This document shows positions 1,450 through 16,308 of a DNA stretch of 64,000 nucleotides, one piece after another. Made by a program: the position numbers and the translations under genes. Location of the stretch: the NCBI RefSeq assembly GCF_002563635.1, contig NZ_PDIZ01000001.1, positions 62,001 through 126,000 of the forward strand. Reading direction: 5' to 3'. This DNA comes from Bacillus sp. es.036. Its GTDB lineage: Bacteria > Bacillota > Bacilli > Bacillales > Guptibacillaceae. Within the stretch, counting starts at the first letter, position 1; each line of letters opens with the position of its first letter. The notes beneath the pieces were generated by a model, which saw only the letters and a list, made by a program, of their open reading frames with translations, did not search any database and was not told where the DNA came from.

Positions 1450-3570
1450 ATGAAAAGGAATAAAGGTTTTAAATTAGTCAGTGTAGGAATGATTGGATGC
1501 ATGTTACTTTCGATGATGTTTTCAACGATCATTGAAACCGCAGCACAAGCAGAGGAAGGTGGGTTCTATCCGCTTCTTATTACAGAAATATCACCGAATA
1601 TTAAAGGGGCGGAAGATTATGAGTATGTGGAGCTTTACAATAATACCAATCAGCCACTTTATTTAAACGATTACGAATTCCTTTATCGCTATACAGATGG
1701 AAGCGATCAAGACAAAAAACTGACTGTCGAACCAGCCGTCATCGCTCCAAGCGAAACAAAGGTGTTATGGTATAACAAAAGCGGCAAAACGATTGTTGAT
1801 TTTGAAAATCACTATGGAGTGAGCGACCTTCAAGATCATGTGATTAGTCTTGGTGGAGAAGAATTTAGTGGTTTTTCAAACGGAGGTAATCGAGGGGTTG
1901 TTCTCTTAGATGGAAAGGGGAATGAAATGCTTCATGCCAGTTATACTGGTGATCAGGCAGCTGAGGATTTGAGCGTCCATTATCAATATCCTACTGGTGA
2001 TAAAGAGATGGTCGTTTATCAAGCAAAACAAGCGCCAACACCAGGAAGTGTTGAGGAGTCCCAGGTTCCACTTAGTCCTCAACCATTATCGAATGTTGCT
2101 ATTACTCATGATGCACTGACAACGCAAAGTGCAAATGAAGATATGACGATTACTGCTGGAATAACAGCGGAAACCGAATTGCAACAAGTTTCGATTGTTT
2201 ATCAGGCATCTCAATTAGAAGTACCTGTTGAACTTCAAATGAAGAAAGTAGAAGATCCTTCAGAACCTTATGGAGGAGTCTACGAAGGCATCATCTCCAA
2301 AGAGAATTTTGCTTTTTCAAAGGAAATGACTTACTACATAAAGGTTGAAACAGCTCGATATACAAAGAACCATCCTATTCATTCCGGTGAGCCGTTTACA
2401 ATAAAAATAGAAGAAGCCTTAAAAAATGAGCCGCCGGTAATCACTCATGAAGTTCCTCAACCAACTGGAAATCAAGATGTGACAATTTCCGCGGAAATAA
2501 AAGACGATACTGGGGTGCAATCTGCCGTATTATTCTATCGTCAGGATGAAGAGATGGAACCAGTCTCCATTCCTATGGAGATTGAAGAGGGAGATGTGTA
2601 TACAGCCGTTATTCCATCTAAAAAGCTTTGGTCTAATAAAATTGTCTATACGATTGAAGCGAATGATGGCAAGCACTCAGTGACTTCTGAAGAGTATCAA
2701 ATTAACGTTGATCGTCCGGAAATTGATTCAGGGAAATTGCCAGAGTTACTCGTTACAGAAGTTGTTCCTGATTCAACGAATGTTAACGGAGCGGATGGGT
2801 ATGAATTTATCGAGGTTTACAATACGACAGATCAAGCAATTAACTTCAAGGATTATAAAATCCAGTATCGGTACCCGATGGATGGCCCGGAAGCAGATTT
2901 GATTTGGTCACCTCAAAAAGAAGATGTCACCATTCCTTCAGGTCAATCAATGGTTTTTTGGATTATCAATTCAGCAAATCAAAACGAAACGGTTGCTGAT
3001 TTTAACAAGAATTACGGATCAGCGCTAGTTGAAAATGAATCCATTGTAAAAGTAGAATCGAATGGGATGTCGAATAGCAGTTCCCGAGGAATCCTTGTTG
3101 CAACGAATACGGGGAAAGAGATTTCGATTGGTAATTATAACGATCAGGTCGGCATTGATGATACCGCTGCAAATAAAGGGATTCTTTATACGTATCCAAC
3201 AGATGGTACACAAATATTAAGGAAAATCAGCAGTGCTACTGAGCCAGCTTCTCCAGGTAATGTGTTACCAGGTCAGGTACCCGCTGATTTAATCAAGGTA
3301 GAAGAAGATAGCGAACCCCCTTCTATTGAAGCGCTACATGATTTTGAGAAAATGAAGCAAACAGAAAATATCGAACTAATCTTTGATGCCGAGGATAATC
3401 ATCTTGTGAAGACAGTAGCACTTTTCTATAAGCATGAGAGTGAAGAGAACTTCCGCAAAGTGTATTTAAAAGAAGACTTTGACGATACATTCTATCATCG
3501 TAAAAGATGGCGATATTCTCTCTGGAAAGGAAATCATAAAAGGTGCGGCAGATGGAGCAACACCAGATGA
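1450..3570 (+). CDS. 5' portion: signal peptide and two lamin-tail domains
   Basis: This open frame gives 706 residues, of which about the first 683 look genuine. Residues 1-35 are a signal peptide (basic start, hydrophobic core, cleavage near AAQAEEG). Lamin-tail domains are visible near residues 40-190 (LLITEISPN, EYVELYNNT, VLLDGKGNEM) and 430-600 (LLVTEVVPDS, EFIEVYNTT). Between and after them lie repeated modules with the pattern 'V-LFY ... Y-I---DG'. The last 23 residues after FDDTFYH are out of frame, read from a displaced segment, and end at a spurious stop. If expressed, it would be a truncated exported protein without the enzyme domain. Confidence 0.75.
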   Translation: MKRNKGFKLVSVGMIGCMLLSMMFSTIIETAAQAEEGGFYPLLITEISPNIKGAEDYEYVELYNNTNQPLYLNDYEFLYRYTDGSDQDKKLTVEPAVIAPSETKVLWYNKSGKTIVDFENHYGVSDLQDHVISLGGEEFSGFSNGGNRGVVLLDGKGNEMLHASYTGDQAAEDLSVHYQYPTGDKEMVVYQAKQAPTPGSVEESQVPLSPQPLSNVAITHDALTTQSANEDMTITAGITAETELQQVSIVYQASQLEVPVELQMKKVEDPSEPYGGVYEGIISKENFAFSKEMTYYIKVETARYTKNHPIHSGEPFTIKIEEALKNEPPVITHEVPQPTGNQDVTISAEIKDDTGVQSAVLFYRQDEEMEPVSIPMEIEEGDVYTAVIPSKKLWSNKIVYTIEANDGKHSVTSEEYQINVDRPEIDSGKLPELLVTEVVPDSTNVNGADGYEFIEVYNTTDQAINFKDYKIQYRYPMDGPEADLIWSPQKEDVTIPSGQSMVFWIINSANQNETVADFNKNYGSALVENESIVKVESNGMSNSSSRGILVATNTGKEISIGNYNDQVGIDDTAANKGILYTYPTDGTQILRKISSATEPASPGNVLPGQVPADLIKVEEDSEPPSIEALHDFEKMKQTENIELIFDAEDNHLVKTVALFYKHESEENFRKVYLKEDFDDTFYHRKRWRYSLWKGNHKRCGRWSNTR

Positions 3571-3892
3571 TCTCCTTCTAAAAATCGATGGGGAAGAGCC
3601 AACAAACACGTTTAAAGCATTACACCATTTATTCACCCGATTTAATTGGTAGAAATGGAATTGAGTATTATACGGAAGTATCTGATGGAACGAACCGTAT
3701 CAAAAGTGAGGTAAAAAAGATTGAGATTGAACAGCCAGTGAAGGAGGCCGTTCGATTAAATGCTATTTCAAGCTGACTGGATTGGATCGGAACCGATAGC
3801 GTCATGTAGCGATTGATTGTATCATCAAAAATAAGAAGCGCTTCTTCTCCCATCGTCACGCCATTTTTGAAAAAGAGATTTGTTTTCTTCAC
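3499..3892. other. Scrambled core of the lamin-tail gene (segments C, B, inverted D)
   Basis: Three coding blocks are out of order. Block C (about 3499-3620, frame of 3500) encodes a peptide starting VKDGDILSGKEI. Block B (about 3621-3762, frame of 3618) encodes HYTIYSPDLIGRNGIEYY. Block D (about 3763-3892) only makes sense on the minus strand, encoding KKTNLFFKNGVTMGEEAL and ending PIQSSQLEI. Removing 3499-3620 joins A to B exactly in frame at a shared CAT. The joined peptide then matches the paralogous module upstream in the same protein ('SAVLFY...KIVYTIEANDG' against 'TVALFY...GIEYYTEVSDG'). The inferred ancestral order is A-B-C-D-E. Confidence 0.8.
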
Positions 3893-6337
3893 ATGAACCA
3901 AAATACGATTAGCATTCGTTCTGGAACGAAAGTATCACCATTTGACGACAATTCAGAAGAAAACCGTGATGATTTCTATGTCAAGAATATTCGACTTGTC
4001 ATGAGTGATGGCACAATGATTCAAGACGAAGCTTATATGAATCCAGAACAGGAACTTACAATTGGAGACGGGGGAGGAGCTGCTCCAGTTATCGATTTTA
4101 ACTTTACTCTTTCAGAAGACCTCTTTTCTTCTCTTGCTTACCAGTGGGATACAAGAAAGACAAGGGACGGTTTGCATACCATTCAGGTTCGCGATCCTAA
4201 GAAAGGGAGCATGGAAAAAACAGTTCTTGTTGATAATACAGCTCCAACGATCCTCCCAACGATAGAAACAAAAGAATATAAAGGGAAGTTTACGATTGAT
4301 GCACAGCTTGTTGATAAAACATCAGGGATGGAAGAGCTAACCGCAACGCTTGATGGAGAAACAATCGAATTGCCTTATGAGACATCTTCTGTTGAACTAG
4401 AGGCTGGTGAGCACGTTGCGGTATTTACAGGATATGATGTAGCTGGAAACAAAGCAGAAGAAAAGGTTCCATTTACAGTAGTAGAAGAACAGCCTGAAAA
4501 ACCTGAAGTCATTTCACCAGAGAATGGAGAAGGAAATGTAACAGGAAACCCAAAGCTAAAAGTACTTGTGGAAGATCCAACAAATGATAAGTTAGACGTT
4601 GATTTTTATAAAGGCTATCAATATTCCGCTGGAGATAAAAATATTAGCGTCCATGCGAACACAGTAGATACAGAACCGCCTGGCGTTTTTGAACCAGAAG
4701 GGGAGAAAGCATTCACTGAAAAAGAGATTCAGCTAATTTCAGAAGTAGATCAACAATATATGACCACTGATTCAACAACTCAATTCCCATATCACCGTTT
4801 TGATATTGAGGTAGAAGAGGCGGTTCAGGATGGTGATCGAATTGCTCTTAATTGGAAAGGAAAATCATTAGAAGGAAGAAAAGTATCGATGTATGCCTGG
4901 AACCATAATCAGGAAAACTGGTATCCGATTGTGCAGCAGATCGCACCAGAAGGAGATTTCACTCTTGAAGGATCTGTCACGGCCAAAGATTATGTGAAAG
5001 ACCAAAAAGTGACGGTTCTTGTTCAAGACGAAATTCCAGAAAATCGTAATCAATATGATTATACGTTTGTATGGATGAGCGATACGCAATATTATTCTGA
5101 GAGCTATCCGTATATTTATCAAAAGCAAACTGAGTGGATTAAAGATCAGCAAGAAGAAATGAAAATTAAATACGTGTTCCATACCGGAGATTTAGTGGAT
5201 GAAGCGGATAAAGTCTACCAGTGGAACAATGCAGATGCAAGTATGAAAGTGCTTGATGATGCCGGCATTCGTTACGGTGTTCTAGCAGGTAACCATGATG
5301 TTGATAATAAAACCGGTGACTATACAGCCTTTTCGAAGTATTTTGGAGAGTCGCGCTTTAACGGTCGAGATTATTATGGTGAGTCTTATCAAGATAACAG
5401 GGGACACTATGACCTTATCTCTGAGAATGGCAATGATTATCTGATGCTTTATATGGGCTGGGGAATTGAGCAAGAGGAAATCGACTGGATGAATGCTGTT
5501 TTAGCTCAGTATCCTGATCGAATGGCGATTCTATCTTTCCATGAATATTTGCTTGTTTCAGGAAATCGAAGCCCACTTGCAGACGAAATCTATGAAAAGG
5601 TTGTTGTGCCAAATAAGAATGTTGTTGCAACTTTATCAGGCCATTACCATGACAGTGAGTTATTAGTAAATGAAATTGATGACGATGGTGATGGGAGAGC
5701 AGATCGAAACGTGTATCAAATTCTTGCAGACTATCAGGGAGGACCAGAAGGCGGGCAGGGGTATTTACGTTTGTTACATGTCGATGTTGCGAATAATCGA
5801 ATCTATATGAACACATATTCTCCTTACTTAGATGATTATAACTTCTATGATAATGAGCAATACCCAGGAAAAGATGAATTTACGATTGATCTTAATCTAG
5901 AGCCACAAGTGAAACGTGTAGCGACTGATTATTTTGAAGTAAATGTTTATACGGAAGAAAAAATCGGTTCAGATCGCGGTGTAAGGAGTGGAGCCATTGC
6001 TGAAGCGAAATGGAAGAAGCTTGCTAAAGGTGAAACGTATTATTGGTATGCCACCGCTTCTGATCAGTTTGGGGGGAAAACAACGTCTGACATCTGGCAC
6101 TTTACAATGAAGGGGTCAAAAAATGAGAGAGTCGAAAAAGAGAAAGATAAAGAACCTACTCAAAAAGAGGATCTAAAAAAAGAGGATAAAGAAGTAAAAG
6201 AAGATAAGAAAGGTGAGAATGGGATTAAGAAAGTTCAAACGAAAGATGAACAAAAACCTAAACCGAACGATGAGCTTGTAGATGAAGAGAATTCAAGCAG
6301 TGAGCAAGTAAACGAAGAAGATCCTGAGAATAAATAA
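3893..6337 (+). CDS. 3' portion: metallophosphoesterase domain and charged tail
   Basis: This 814-codon frame continues the secreted protein from NTISIRSGTKVSPFDD. The calcineurin-like phosphoesterase domain lies at about residues 385-640 and has the expected metal-ligand motifs in order: MSDTQYY, HTGDLVDEAD, LAGNHDVD, SFHEY and LSGHYHDSE. A GDGRAD-type loop and a fibronectin-like segment ending TTSDIWHFTMKG follow, then a tail of about 75 residues almost entirely Lys, Glu, Asp and Gln. The ATG at 3893 has no ribosome site and sits right at the inversion edge, so independent translation is doubtful. The domain itself looks intact. Confidence 0.75.
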   Translation: MNQNTISIRSGTKVSPFDDNSEENRDDFYVKNIRLVMSDGTMIQDEAYMNPEQELTIGDGGGAAPVIDFNFTLSEDLFSSLAYQWDTRKTRDGLHTIQVRDPKKGSMEKTVLVDNTAPTILPTIETKEYKGKFTIDAQLVDKTSGMEELTATLDGETIELPYETSSVELEAGEHVAVFTGYDVAGNKAEEKVPFTVVEEQPEKPEVISPENGEGNVTGNPKLKVLVEDPTNDKLDVDFYKGYQYSAGDKNISVHANTVDTEPPGVFEPEGEKAFTEKEIQLISEVDQQYMTTDSTTQFPYHRFDIEVEEAVQDGDRIALNWKGKSLEGRKVSMYAWNHNQENWYPIVQQIAPEGDFTLEGSVTAKDYVKDQKVTVLVQDEIPENRNQYDYTFVWMSDTQYYSESYPYIYQKQTEWIKDQQEEMKIKYVFHTGDLVDEADKVYQWNNADASMKVLDDAGIRYGVLAGNHDVDNKTGDYTAFSKYFGESRFNGRDYYGESYQDNRGHYDLISENGNDYLMLYMGWGIEQEEIDWMNAVLAQYPDRMAILSFHEYLLVSGNRSPLADEIYEKVVVPNKNVVATLSGHYHDSELLVNEIDDDGDGRADRNVYQILADYQGGPEGGQGYLRLLHVDVANNRIYMNTYSPYLDDYNFYDNEQYPGKDEFTIDLNLEPQVKRVATDYFEVNVYTEEKIGSDRGVRSGAIAEAKWKKLAKGETYYWYATASDQFGGKTTSDIWHFTMKGSKNERVEKEKDKEPTQKEDLKKEDKEVKEDKKGENGIKKVQTKDEQKPKPNDELVDEENSSSEQVNEEDPENK

Positions 6338-8264: not shown

Positions 8265-8310
8265 TAGCTAAAGAGGCTGGGACATAACTAGCCTGAAATA
8301 TCGATAAAAA

Positions 8311-8348
8311 GGTTCCGTTCATCGTTTTTGATGAACGGAACCTTTTTT
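8311..8348. terminator. Hairpin at left end of the IS
   Basis: 13-bp perfect stem GGTTCCGTTCATC / GATGAACGGAACC with a 6-base loop. A-rich and T-rich flanks make it a bidirectional terminator. It would stop both transposase transcripts and read-through from ohr. Confidence 0.8.
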
Positions 8349-8374
8349 GTTCGGTTATTCCTAAGATTATTGGA

Positions 8375-9949
8375 TCACTCTGCACTCATGGCGGTGTACT
8401 TTCTCAAGTTCACCGCCATGATCGCAAAGCCCATTTCATTTTTGACCTTCTCTTTGCCCCTTACGGACATCCGAGTGAAACCCAAAATAGCCTTCAGAAA
8501 TCCAAAAACTGGCTCTACATCGATTTTCCGTTGACCGTAGATTTCACCTGTTTTTTCGTCCGAAAGCAGCTCTTTAACCTTATTCTTTTGTTGTTCCCAC
8601 TTGGTATTGTAATAGATTCTCCGATTCGTGCCATCTTTGGTCTTTGTACATTGTTTACGTAAGGGACAACCGGTACAATCTTCGCATTCATAAACTTTAA
8701 ATTCTCGTTTGAAGCCACTCCGGTCAGTGCGATGAGAGACGTAACGGAACGGCAACAGTTTCCCATTTGGGCATGTGAATAAATCTTCTTCTTCATTGTA
8801 GTCCCAGTTGGATACGCGAAACGTATCCTTCGTAAAGCTCTTCTTTTTCTCTTTGCGATAGGTATTGTACGTGATGAGAGGGATTCGCTTCCGATTCTCC
8901 AGGACATCGATGTAGTTTTCTTCGCTTCCATAACCGGCATCCGCGACGATGTAAGGTGGGAGTTTAAAGGAATCATTCTCCACACGATCTAGAAAGGGAC
9001 GAAATGTGCGTGTATCCGTTGGATTCGGGAAGATATCATAAGCGAGCGTATATTGTCCCTCCGTCGCAATCTGGAGATTGTAACCGGCTTTGAGTTGCCC
9101 ATTTTTCATATAGTCATCTTTCATGCGCATGAACGTGGCATCGTGATCGGTTTTGGAATAACTGTTCCGTTCTTTGAAGATAGCCATATCGTTTTCGTAT
9201 TTTGTTTTGCGCAATACGAAATCCTTCATTTGTTTAAGGAACTGCTTCGATCCTTTTCGCTCTGAACGAAGCTTTTTTCGTTCGGTTACATCGGCACTGG
9301 TTTCAATCTTCTCATTGTATTCTCCGACTTTTTCTTCTAGCTTTTCTTCTATTTTAGAAAGTTCTTTAATGGAAAGTTGTTCTGGACTTTCCCGTTCGAT
9401 TTCGGGGATCACTTCTTTTTCAATCAACTCATCGTACATCGCATTCGACTTTTCAATCAGACTCTCGCTGTACCTTTCAACAGCCTTTCGCCACACAAAT
9501 GTAAACTTATTGGCATTCGCTTCAATCTTCGTACCATCAATAAAGATCGCTTCATCATCAATGAGGTCTTTTTGAACGAGCTGACAACGAAACTGTACGA
9601 AGCCCTGACGAAGAAGTTCTTTGACTTCTGGGTGGACACGGAACCGATTGATTGTGCGATAGCTGGGTTCATACCCTTGCGCTAACCACATCATCCGTAC
9701 ACTATCCTTGAGGAGACCTTCAATCTTTCTTCCTGAAAAAGCCGATTGGGTGTACGCACATAAAATAACTTTCATCATCATACGTGGGTGATAAGCAGGG
9801 CATCCCGTATCACGTAGGAACGCAGAAAAAGCTTCATCCGGAATCTGTTCGACCAACTCATGGACGGCATAGGCGATATCATTTTCTTGTAATTTCATTT
9901 CTAAATCTAGGGGCAAAATCACTTGATTCATGTTATAATCTTTAAACAT
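8375..9949 (-). CDS. IS1182-family transposase
   Basis: DDE transposase of 524 residues, apparently intact. The N-terminal region (about 15-90) matches the transposase N-domain with FSAFLRDTGCPAYHPRMMMK. Catalytic acidic residues are visible in IFIDGTKIEANANKF, YIVADAGYGSEENY and KIDVEPVFGFLKAILGF. Residues 395-460 hold a Cys-rich module (FTCPNGK, YECEDCTGCPLRKQC) typical of the C-terminal DDE_Tnp_1_6 type. A coiled, charged insertion occurs around 170-240. GGAGGTGCCCTT precedes the ATG. Confidence 0.93.
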   Translation of the reverse strand: MFKDYNMNQVILPLDLEMKLQENDIAYAVHELVEQIPDEAFSAFLRDTGCPAYHPRMMMKVILCAYTQSAFSGRKIEGLLKDSVRMMWLAQGYEPSYRTINRFRVHPEVKELLRQGFVQFRCQLVQKDLIDDEAIFIDGTKIEANANKFTFVWRKAVERYSESLIEKSNAMYDELIEKEVIPEIERESPEQLSIKELSKIEEKLEEKVGEYNEKIETSADVTERKKLRSERKGSKQFLKQMKDFVLRKTKYENDMAIFKERNSYSKTDHDATFMRMKDDYMKNGQLKAGYNLQIATEGQYTLAYDIFPNPTDTRTFRPFLDRVENDSFKLPPYIVADAGYGSEENYIDVLENRKRIPLITYNTYRKEKKKSFTKDTFRVSNWDYNEEEDLFTCPNGKLLPFRYVSHRTDRSGFKREFKVYECEDCTGCPLRKQCTKTKDGTNRRIYYNTKWEQQKNKVKELLSDEKTGEIYGQRKIDVEPVFGFLKAILGFTRMSVRGKEKVKNEMGFAIMAVNLRKYTAMSAE

Positions 9950-10040
9950 AAGGGCACCTCCGATGGTTATTGTGTGGTAACTATAATTTTATCAGAGGTT
10001 GTCCTTATTTTATTGTTAAATTAAGATGAAAATATAGAAA

Positions 10041-15753: not shown

Positions 15754-16308
15754 GTGAATTCTGTCGGAGCCATTCAAAGCACGGAGCAGATTGAGATATT
15801 AAAAAGAGCGTTATTGAACCGATCAAAACGAGACTATTTGTTGTTTATTTTCAGTATTAATACGGGCTTGCGTTTAACGCCTCTTTTGCATCTTACCCTT
15901 AATCATGTGATGAATGGATCTTTTAATGAATTCCTAGAATCATCTATTACCGAAACAACAGATATCTACCTCAATTCAGAAGTGAAACGCGCTCTTACGC
16001 TTTATGTGAATGAGCATCCTTCAAATGATAACTTTTACCTTTTTCATACGAAAAAAGATCCTACTCATCCAATTACAAGACAGCAGGTTCATCGCATCTT
16101 ATCTCAAGCGGGAAAAGATGCCGGACTTGAGCATCCAATCAGCTTTCATAGTTTAAGAAAAACGTTTGGTTATCATGCGTTTCAACAGGGAGTAGCCGTG
16201 TCTCTCATTCAAAAAATTTATGGACATGCGACGAGAAGTGAAACATTAAAATATATCGGTATAAATTCTGAGCAAATTCCGAAACTGAAGATTGATGTAC
16301 ATTTATAG
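15754..16308 (+). CDS. Tyrosine recombinase, catalytic domain only
   Basis: 184 residues covering just the catalytic domain of phage-integrase-type recombinases. The conserved residues appear in order: Arg in INTGLRLTPLLHLTL, Lys in HTKKDPTHP, His-x-x-Arg in SFHSLRKTFG, His in KIYGHATRSET and the Tyr nucleophile in LKYIGI. The N-terminal SAM-like DNA-binding domain is absent. The frame is open from TTG 15727, but AAAGGACG is better spaced for GTG at 15754. No attachment sites or phage genes surround it. It lies 15 bases before the antiporter gene and may be co-transcribed with it. Confidence 0.85.
   Translation: MNSVGAIQSTEQIEILKRALLNRSKRDYLLFIFSINTGLRLTPLLHLTLNHVMNGSFNEFLESSITETTDIYLNSEVKRALTLYVNEHPSNDNFYLFHTKKDPTHPITRQQVHRILSQAGKDAGLEHPISFHSLRKTFGYHAFQQGVAVSLIQKIYGHATRSETLKYIGINSEQIPKLKIDVHL

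What the first reader, a model, noticed from the sequence alone, without database searches (positions are those of the whole stretch)
3450..3910. Lamin-tail gene shuffled within 390 bp: A-C-B-inverted D-E
Seen: three adjacent coding blocks of about 122, 142 and 130 bp sit in the wrong order, and the third is on the wrong strand, yet each still reads as good protein. Deleting 3499-3620 restores frame exactly at a duplicated CAT and regenerates a module matching one earlier in the same protein. Possible short overlaps sit at the joins (CAT/CATTA, G, CATG). This is not a simple indel or one inversion. Inference: a template-switching micro-rearrangement, or an assembly error; a programmed switch is possible but unsupported.
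Basis: partly seen in the sequence, partly recalled or inferred. Interest (0 to 1): 0.75.

Follow-up and report, generated by a model that had tools for sequence, protein, structure and literature searches.

The report
Locally shuffled, broken secreted phosphoesterase gene
In this bacterium one gene has been cut into pieces within about 400 bases and rejoined in the wrong order with one piece back to front, most likely by error-prone repair of several DNA breaks, which leaves the gene broken.

Summary
The window gene (1450-6337; lamin-tail domains plus a metallophosphoesterase) reads A-C-B-inverted D-E. Of 13 same-genus relatives searched (genus Pseudalkalibacillus), six carry the gene, and all six have one open frame in order A-B-C-D-E. 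In 25 of 25 distinct relative loci the blocks found keep that order; all five blocks were found in 15.

Joins: A|C 3499|3500, C|B 3619|3622, B|invD 3762|3763, invD|E 3894|3895. Every block occurs once. Net loss is 26 bp: 28 bp at C/D and 1 bp at D/E lost, 1 bp duplicated at B/C, 2 nt of filler. Three joins share no base; the fourth has up to 2 bp, or a TT filler. Microhomology is neither above nor clearly below chance.

This is cut-and-rejoin geometry. The genome carries Ku, an ATP-dependent ligase and a LigD-type polymerase. No second such scramble was seen by eye in 780 kb (18% of the genome) compared with one relative. An assembly error cannot be excluded without reads. A programmed switch is not supported. 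The gene is very probably a recent pseudogene.

The parts
1450..3499 (+). Block A: 5' half of the gene, signal-peptide-like start (by eye), two lamin tail domain stretches; the open frame continues into block C and stops at 3570
   Evidence: the ORF listing; Pfam PF00932; A|C break placed at 3499|3500 against six relatives
3500..3619 (+). Block C (third in relatives), here second; 28 bp that follow it in relatives are missing
3620..3621 (+). TT at the C|B join: 2-nt filler, or part of B with one substitution after a CA overlap
3622..3762 (+). Block B (second in relatives), here third
3763..3894 (-). Block D, inverted
3895..6337 (+). Block E: rest of the gene with calcineurin-like metallophosphoesterase domain, frame open; the ATG at 3893 is created by the invD|E join

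Best explanation
The gene was cut at four places within about 420 bp in one cell lineage. The three freed pieces (B 141 bp, C 120 bp after losing 28 bp, D 132 bp) were religated as C, B and inverted D. The joins are blunt or almost blunt, as expected of Ku/LigD-type non-homologous end joining, perhaps in a resting cell or germinating spore with clustered DNA damage. The result is a loss-of-function allele of an accessory secreted lamin-tail/metallophosphoesterase gene. Shown: order, orientation, cut points, losses, presence of Ku, ligase and polymerase genes, open order in relatives. Inferred: a single event, the end-joining pathway, the spore setting, and the pseudogene status.
For: Each block is present exactly once, with net change at the four cuts of 0, +1, -28 and -1 bp plus 2 nt of filler. 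An ad hoc copying model with independent end points never tiled like this in 3,000,000 draws (model and thresholds set after seeing the data). Total microhomology is 0-2 bp against a chance mean of 2.89. Ku, an ATP-dependent ligase and a LigD prim-pol lie together in this genome. The relatives' order is A-B-C-D-E in 25 of 25 distinct loci for the blocks found. Seven of 13 same-genus relatives gave no match to the second half, so loss is tolerable, and the own genome gave no second match to either half. In PMC3161906 (passages read) all 40 sequenced E. coli amplification junctions, read there as template switches, had microhomology.
Against: No reads were available, so the arrangement itself is unproven. 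Four breaks within 420 bp and retention of 120-140 bp pieces are physically demanding. PMC3161906 (passages) makes this very point: NHEJ needs two double-strand breaks per junction, and its authors do not favour NHEJ in their system. Zero microhomology is not itself unusual: 10% of random shuffles have none and 47% have 2 bp or less. The cuts are rather evenly spaced (140, 134, 146, or piece lengths 140, 120, 132; random spacings reach this in 0.16-1.2% of draws depending on the measure; tested after seeing it), which random damage does not explain. One join could be a 2-bp microhomology. No experiment ties this event to Ku/LigD.
Confidence: 0.45

Rival explanations
1. Serial replication template switching (FoSTeS/MMBIR-like): the nascent strand jumped forward to C, back to B, across to the other strand for D, then resumed at E.
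For: One replicative episode can give several jumps in 400 bp. One join has up to a 2-bp CA overlap with a nearby substitution. An imperfect inverted repeat (12 nt, 1 mismatch) lies beside both cuts of D in relative L004, longer than in 200 of 200 shuffles. PMC3161906 reports complex template-switch events in starving E. coli (passages read).
Against: Three of four joins share no base, and the total is not above chance. Copying does not predict that every block is kept once with shared cut points; 0 of 3,000,000 draws of an ad hoc model did so. Against same-spaced places in the gene the inverted-repeat score is reached by 8 of 435 and was one of 12 comparisons. Its left arm is clear only in L004 of the six (read by eye), and the cuts lie outside the arms.
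Confidence: 0.25
2. Assembly artefact: small local contigs or reads were placed in the wrong order and orientation.
For: No read data were seen. Block sizes are similar (120-141 bp) and near common short-read lengths (recalled). Only this one locus was noticed in the surveyed 780 kb. Both halves show codon changes like an intact gene.
Against: The joins have almost no overlap and no N (one search counts no N in the 400 kb that holds the locus). The longest direct repeat found around the locus is 22 nt at 77% identity and the longest inverted one 20 nt at 80%. The assembly is 4.34 Mb in 3 contigs with the locus inside a 3.65 Mb contig. In 400 kb, 210 of 216 testable relative ORFs are intact here and 209 of 212 the other way.
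Confidence: 0.2
3. Several separate ordinary rearrangements (swap of B and C by circle excision and reinsertion, then inversion of D) accumulated after the gene was already dead.
For: A swap plus an inversion gives the same final order.
Against: The C/D cut must be used by both events. A and E show no further stop or frameshift, and the own lineage has 12 synonymous and 3 non-synonymous unique codons in E, no excess over two relatives (18:7 and 19:7), so there was little time after inactivation.
Confidence: 0.07
4. A programmed DNA switch (shufflon or invertase type) that varies the protein.
For: Genes for tyrosine and serine recombinases exist in the genome (10 and 3 matches); the nearest is a tyrosine recombinase about 12 kb away at window 15787-16266.
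Against: That recombinase region is collinear in relative G009, which has the unshuffled gene. Repeats at the cuts are at chance level except one weak pair. The present order breaks the frame. No other order was found in 25 relative loci. Only two recombinase families were searched for.
Confidence: 0.03

Closest known systems
Chromothripsis / shatter-and-religate rearrangement (known from eukaryotes, recalled)
   Same: Clustered breaks, pieces kept about once, random order and orientation, blunt or near-blunt joins
   Different: Scale is 420 bp with three pieces in a bacterium; an analogy only, since clonality and pathway are untested
Bacterial Ku/LigD non-homologous end joining
   Same: Genes present in this genome; blunt joins, one-base changes and a possible 2-nt filler are compatible
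   Different: No experiment links it to this event; ligase and polymerase are separate ORFs here, whereas the B. subtilis LigD is one multifunctional protein (start of the abstract of PMC13201618, seen in the listings)
Microhomology-mediated template switching in E. coli (PMC3161906, passages read)
   Same: Complex local change with inversion
   Different: Those junctions carried microhomology and belonged mostly to amplifications and duplications; here microhomology is not above chance and no block is duplicated
Inverted-repeat spacer inversion by template switching (PMC8604942, passages read)
   Same: An imperfect inverted repeat flanks D in relative L004
   Different: The cuts lie outside the repeat arms, the spacer is about 140 bp where the paper's inverted spacers span 2-5 bp of substitutions, and B and C are also swapped

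Membership tests
Lamin-tail-domain plus calcineurin-like metallophosphoesterase protein (gene identity) | PF00932 and PF00149 above cut-off in the two halves | tested here: met
   PF00932 70.9 bits (cut-off 34.3), PF00149 44.4 bits (cut-off 21.5)
Lamin-tail-domain plus calcineurin-like metallophosphoesterase protein (gene identity) | One uninterrupted reading frame | tested here: not met
   two frames here; one frame of 1635-1674 aa in six relatives
End-joining (NHEJ) shatter-and-religate event | Pieces kept about once, cut points shared | tested here: met
End-joining (NHEJ) shatter-and-religate event | Little or no microhomology | tested here: met
   0-2 bp in all; not distinguishable from random joins
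End-joining (NHEJ) shatter-and-religate event | Ku and LigD-type functions in the genome | tested here: met
End-joining (NHEJ) shatter-and-religate event | Dependence on Ku/LigD | not testable with these tools
   needs genetics
MMBIR/FoSTeS template switching | Microhomology at joins above chance | tested here: not met
   73% of random shuffles have 2 bp or more in total
MMBIR/FoSTeS template switching | Copied (duplicated) tracts | tested here: not met
   only 1 bp duplicated, plus up to 4 bp on the overlap reading of C|B
Shufflon / invertible switch | Repeated recombination sites at the cuts | tested here: not met
   11 of 12 comparisons at chance level, one weak (8 of 435)
Shufflon / invertible switch | Alternative orders among relatives or cells | tested here: inconclusive
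   none in 25 relative loci; cells of one clone not testable

The most novel reading that the evidence does not exclude
A natural bacterial micro-chromothripsis: one burst of clustered breaks within 420 bp, repaired by Ku/LigD-type end joining, conserved every piece while shuffling and inverting them, which would show that end joining can leave multi-piece scars in spore-former genomes.
Probability: 0.4. Interest if true: 0.6.

Novelty: new variant of a known kind. Interest (0 to 1): 0.4.

Why it matters
If the arrangement is real, it is a readable scar that favours cut-and-rejoin over copy-and-switch in a bacterium: every piece kept once, cut points shared, joins blunt. Such scars could be sought across spore-former genomes with and without Ku/LigD. 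It also warns that two apparently separate ORFs here are one broken gene. For the gene itself the consequence is ordinary: loss of a dispensable secreted enzyme.

Tried and rejected
Programmed switch: looked for repeats at the cuts and for recombinases of two families (PF00239, PF00589). The nearest recombinase lies in sequence collinear with relative G009. Rejected.

Insertion-sequence cause: the transposase gene at 8375-9949 (PF13751) lies about 4.5 kb from the last cut. A search with 8300-10000 found only itself and a 42-bp inverted match at its own end, and no element sequence lies at the joins. Rejected.

A second copy or paralogue as donor: none found with the DNA of 3400-3960 or with either half. 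Rejected.

Recurrence: 780 kb of own sequence (18% of 4.34 Mb) against 800 kb of G009. 61 off-diagonal rows were listed (37, 24), three of them this locus. I read them by eye, and only this locus shows neighbouring blocks swapped plus one inverted. The other 58 look like indels, tandem copies or repeats, but I did not classify each. Three of the 58 are inverted (42, 52 and 146 bp). The scan sees pieces of at least 40 bp and 75% identity within 5 kb. Sum of long aligned pieces: 321,712 bp (pieces of at least 1500 bp) and 290,264 bp (at least 800 bp). The other 82% of the genome was not surveyed.

Literature: searches (15 of 38 papers listed; 15 of 274; 2 of 2; 12 of 24; 10 of 18) listed no title on a bacterial multi-piece scramble of this size; others (genus name, 15 of 18 listed; lamin tail domain and metallophosphoesterase, 12 of 267) listed no title on this gene. 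This is a check of listings only, in an open-licence library.

Ligase by PF04679: no match in the whole-genome search. The ligase was found next to Ku by reading ORFs, with PF01068 above cut-off and PF04679 only below it.

Full report
What was claimed.

Setting. The window is bases 62001-126000 of contig C1 (3.65 Mb) of a 4.34 Mb genome in three contigs. G011 corresponds to Pseudalkalibacillus hwajinpoensis AmN0-1, G006 to P. hwajinpoensis SaN0-1, G001 to P. spartinae FJAT-53046 and G004 to Bacillus sp. RAR_GA_16. The window genome therefore belongs to Pseudalkalibacillus (genus inferred; the record itself is unnamed, and its source habitat is unknown).

The gene. The ORF at 1450-3570 carries two lamin tail domain stretches, and the ORF at 3893-6337 a calcineurin-like metallophosphoesterase domain. 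The second half was searched in the own genome plus 60 relatives: 21 of 61 genomes match, including 6 of 13 same-genus relatives. Those six have a single open frame of 1635-1674 aa. Seven of 13 same-genus relatives gave no match, so the gene looks accessory. Neither half has a second match in the own genome.

The shuffle. Base-level comparison with the six relatives places A to 3499, C at 3500-3619, TT at 3620-3621, B at 3622-3762, inverted D at 3763-3894 and E from 3895. In relative coordinates (0 = window 3300) these are A to 199, C 340-459, B 200-340, D 619-488 and E from 621. So 28 bp (460-487) and 1 bp (620) are lost, 1 bp (340) is used twice and 2 nt are added, net -26, which equals 801 against 827 bp. 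Alternatively B starts at 3618 with a CA overlap (four of six relatives) and one substitution.

Order in relatives. Block peptides were placed in 29 loci, of which four (L029-L032) repeat L004, L007, L005 and L008, leaving 25 distinct loci. In all 25 the blocks found lie in order A-B-C-D-E on one strand. All five blocks were found in 15 of 25, three or four in the other 10. The weaker loci L016-L027 were not used. The unshuffled order is therefore ancestral.

Why cut-and-rejoin rather than copy-and-switch. First, three joins share no base with the relatives' context and the fourth at most two. Random four-cut shuffles of a relative's sequence give a mean total of 2.89 bp; 73% reach 2 bp or more and 10% have none (3,918 of 20,000 draws kept after requiring pieces of at least 60 bp). 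So there is no excess of microhomology, but its absence alone proves nothing. Second, each block is present once and cut points are shared to 0-1 bp at three of four cuts. An ad hoc copying model with independent end points never gave this in 3,000,000 draws; the model and its thresholds were chosen after seeing the data, so this is an order of magnitude only. Third, the genome has a Ku gene with an ATP-dependent ligase and a LigD-type primase-polymerase in overlapping ORFs. In the genus search all 14 genomes had some match to the ligase; 11 of 14 had strong matches with open frames of 300-307 aa, and three (G003, G005, G010) only weak ones. This suggests that the short, split form is normal here and not a lesion; the polymerase ORF was not checked in the relatives. 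Bacterial NHEJ is linked to spores and quiescent cells in PMC1378119 and PMC8656161 (passages read) and in the start of the abstract of PMC4245934 (search listing).

Results that cut the other way. PMC3161906 (passages read) points out that end joining needs two double-strand breaks for each junction and prefers template switching for complex events in E. coli. An imperfect inverted repeat of 12 nt flanks D in relative L004, longer than in any of 200 shuffles. Same-spaced places in the gene reach its score in 8 of 435 cases, and it was one of 12 comparisons, so it is a weak lead towards a hairpin. The cuts are unusually evenly spaced (0.16-1.2% of random draws by different measures), which I cannot explain and which slightly favours an artefact or a structural cause. 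Only one such locus was noticed in the 18% of the genome surveyed.

Age and function. A and E have no further stop or frameshift. Own-lineage unique codons, where four relatives agree, are 12 synonymous and 3 non-synonymous in E, against 18:7 and 19:7 in two relatives. In the last 359 codons of A they are 4:3 against 6:9 and 17:6. There is no sign of long decay, so the event is recent, or is an artefact. The half with the enzyme domain now lacks the export start, and its ATG (3893) is made by the join with no ribosome-binding-like sequence visible by eye. I infer a pseudogene.

Verdict. The best reading is a local break-and-religate event by end joining, with template switching and assembly error as serious rivals. 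Long reads decide between real and artefact.

Noticed in passing
L045:3743-6347 (own genome C1, about 767.7-770.3 kb): LigD functions are split into two overlapping ORFs (ligase, prim-pol) beside Ku; ligase open frames of 300-307 aa in 11 of 14 genomes of the genus suggest this is the normal form there.
   Followed up: partly
window 8375-9949: DDE transposase gene (PF13751) with no counterpart in relative G009 at this place; a search with 8300-10000 found no second copy in the genome, only a 42-bp inverted match at its own end.
   Followed up: partly
window 15787-16266: Tyrosine recombinase-like gene, 193-codon open frame, in a stretch collinear with G009.
   Followed up: partly
own genome C1:145070-146756 and C1:325480-326224: Two further genes that are one frame in G009 read as two adjacent pieces here, as after a frameshift.
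   Followed up: no
L004, region homologous to the C/D and D/E cuts: Imperfect 12-nt inverted repeat flanking block D in this relative; its left arm lies within the 28 bp lost in the window.
   Followed up: partly
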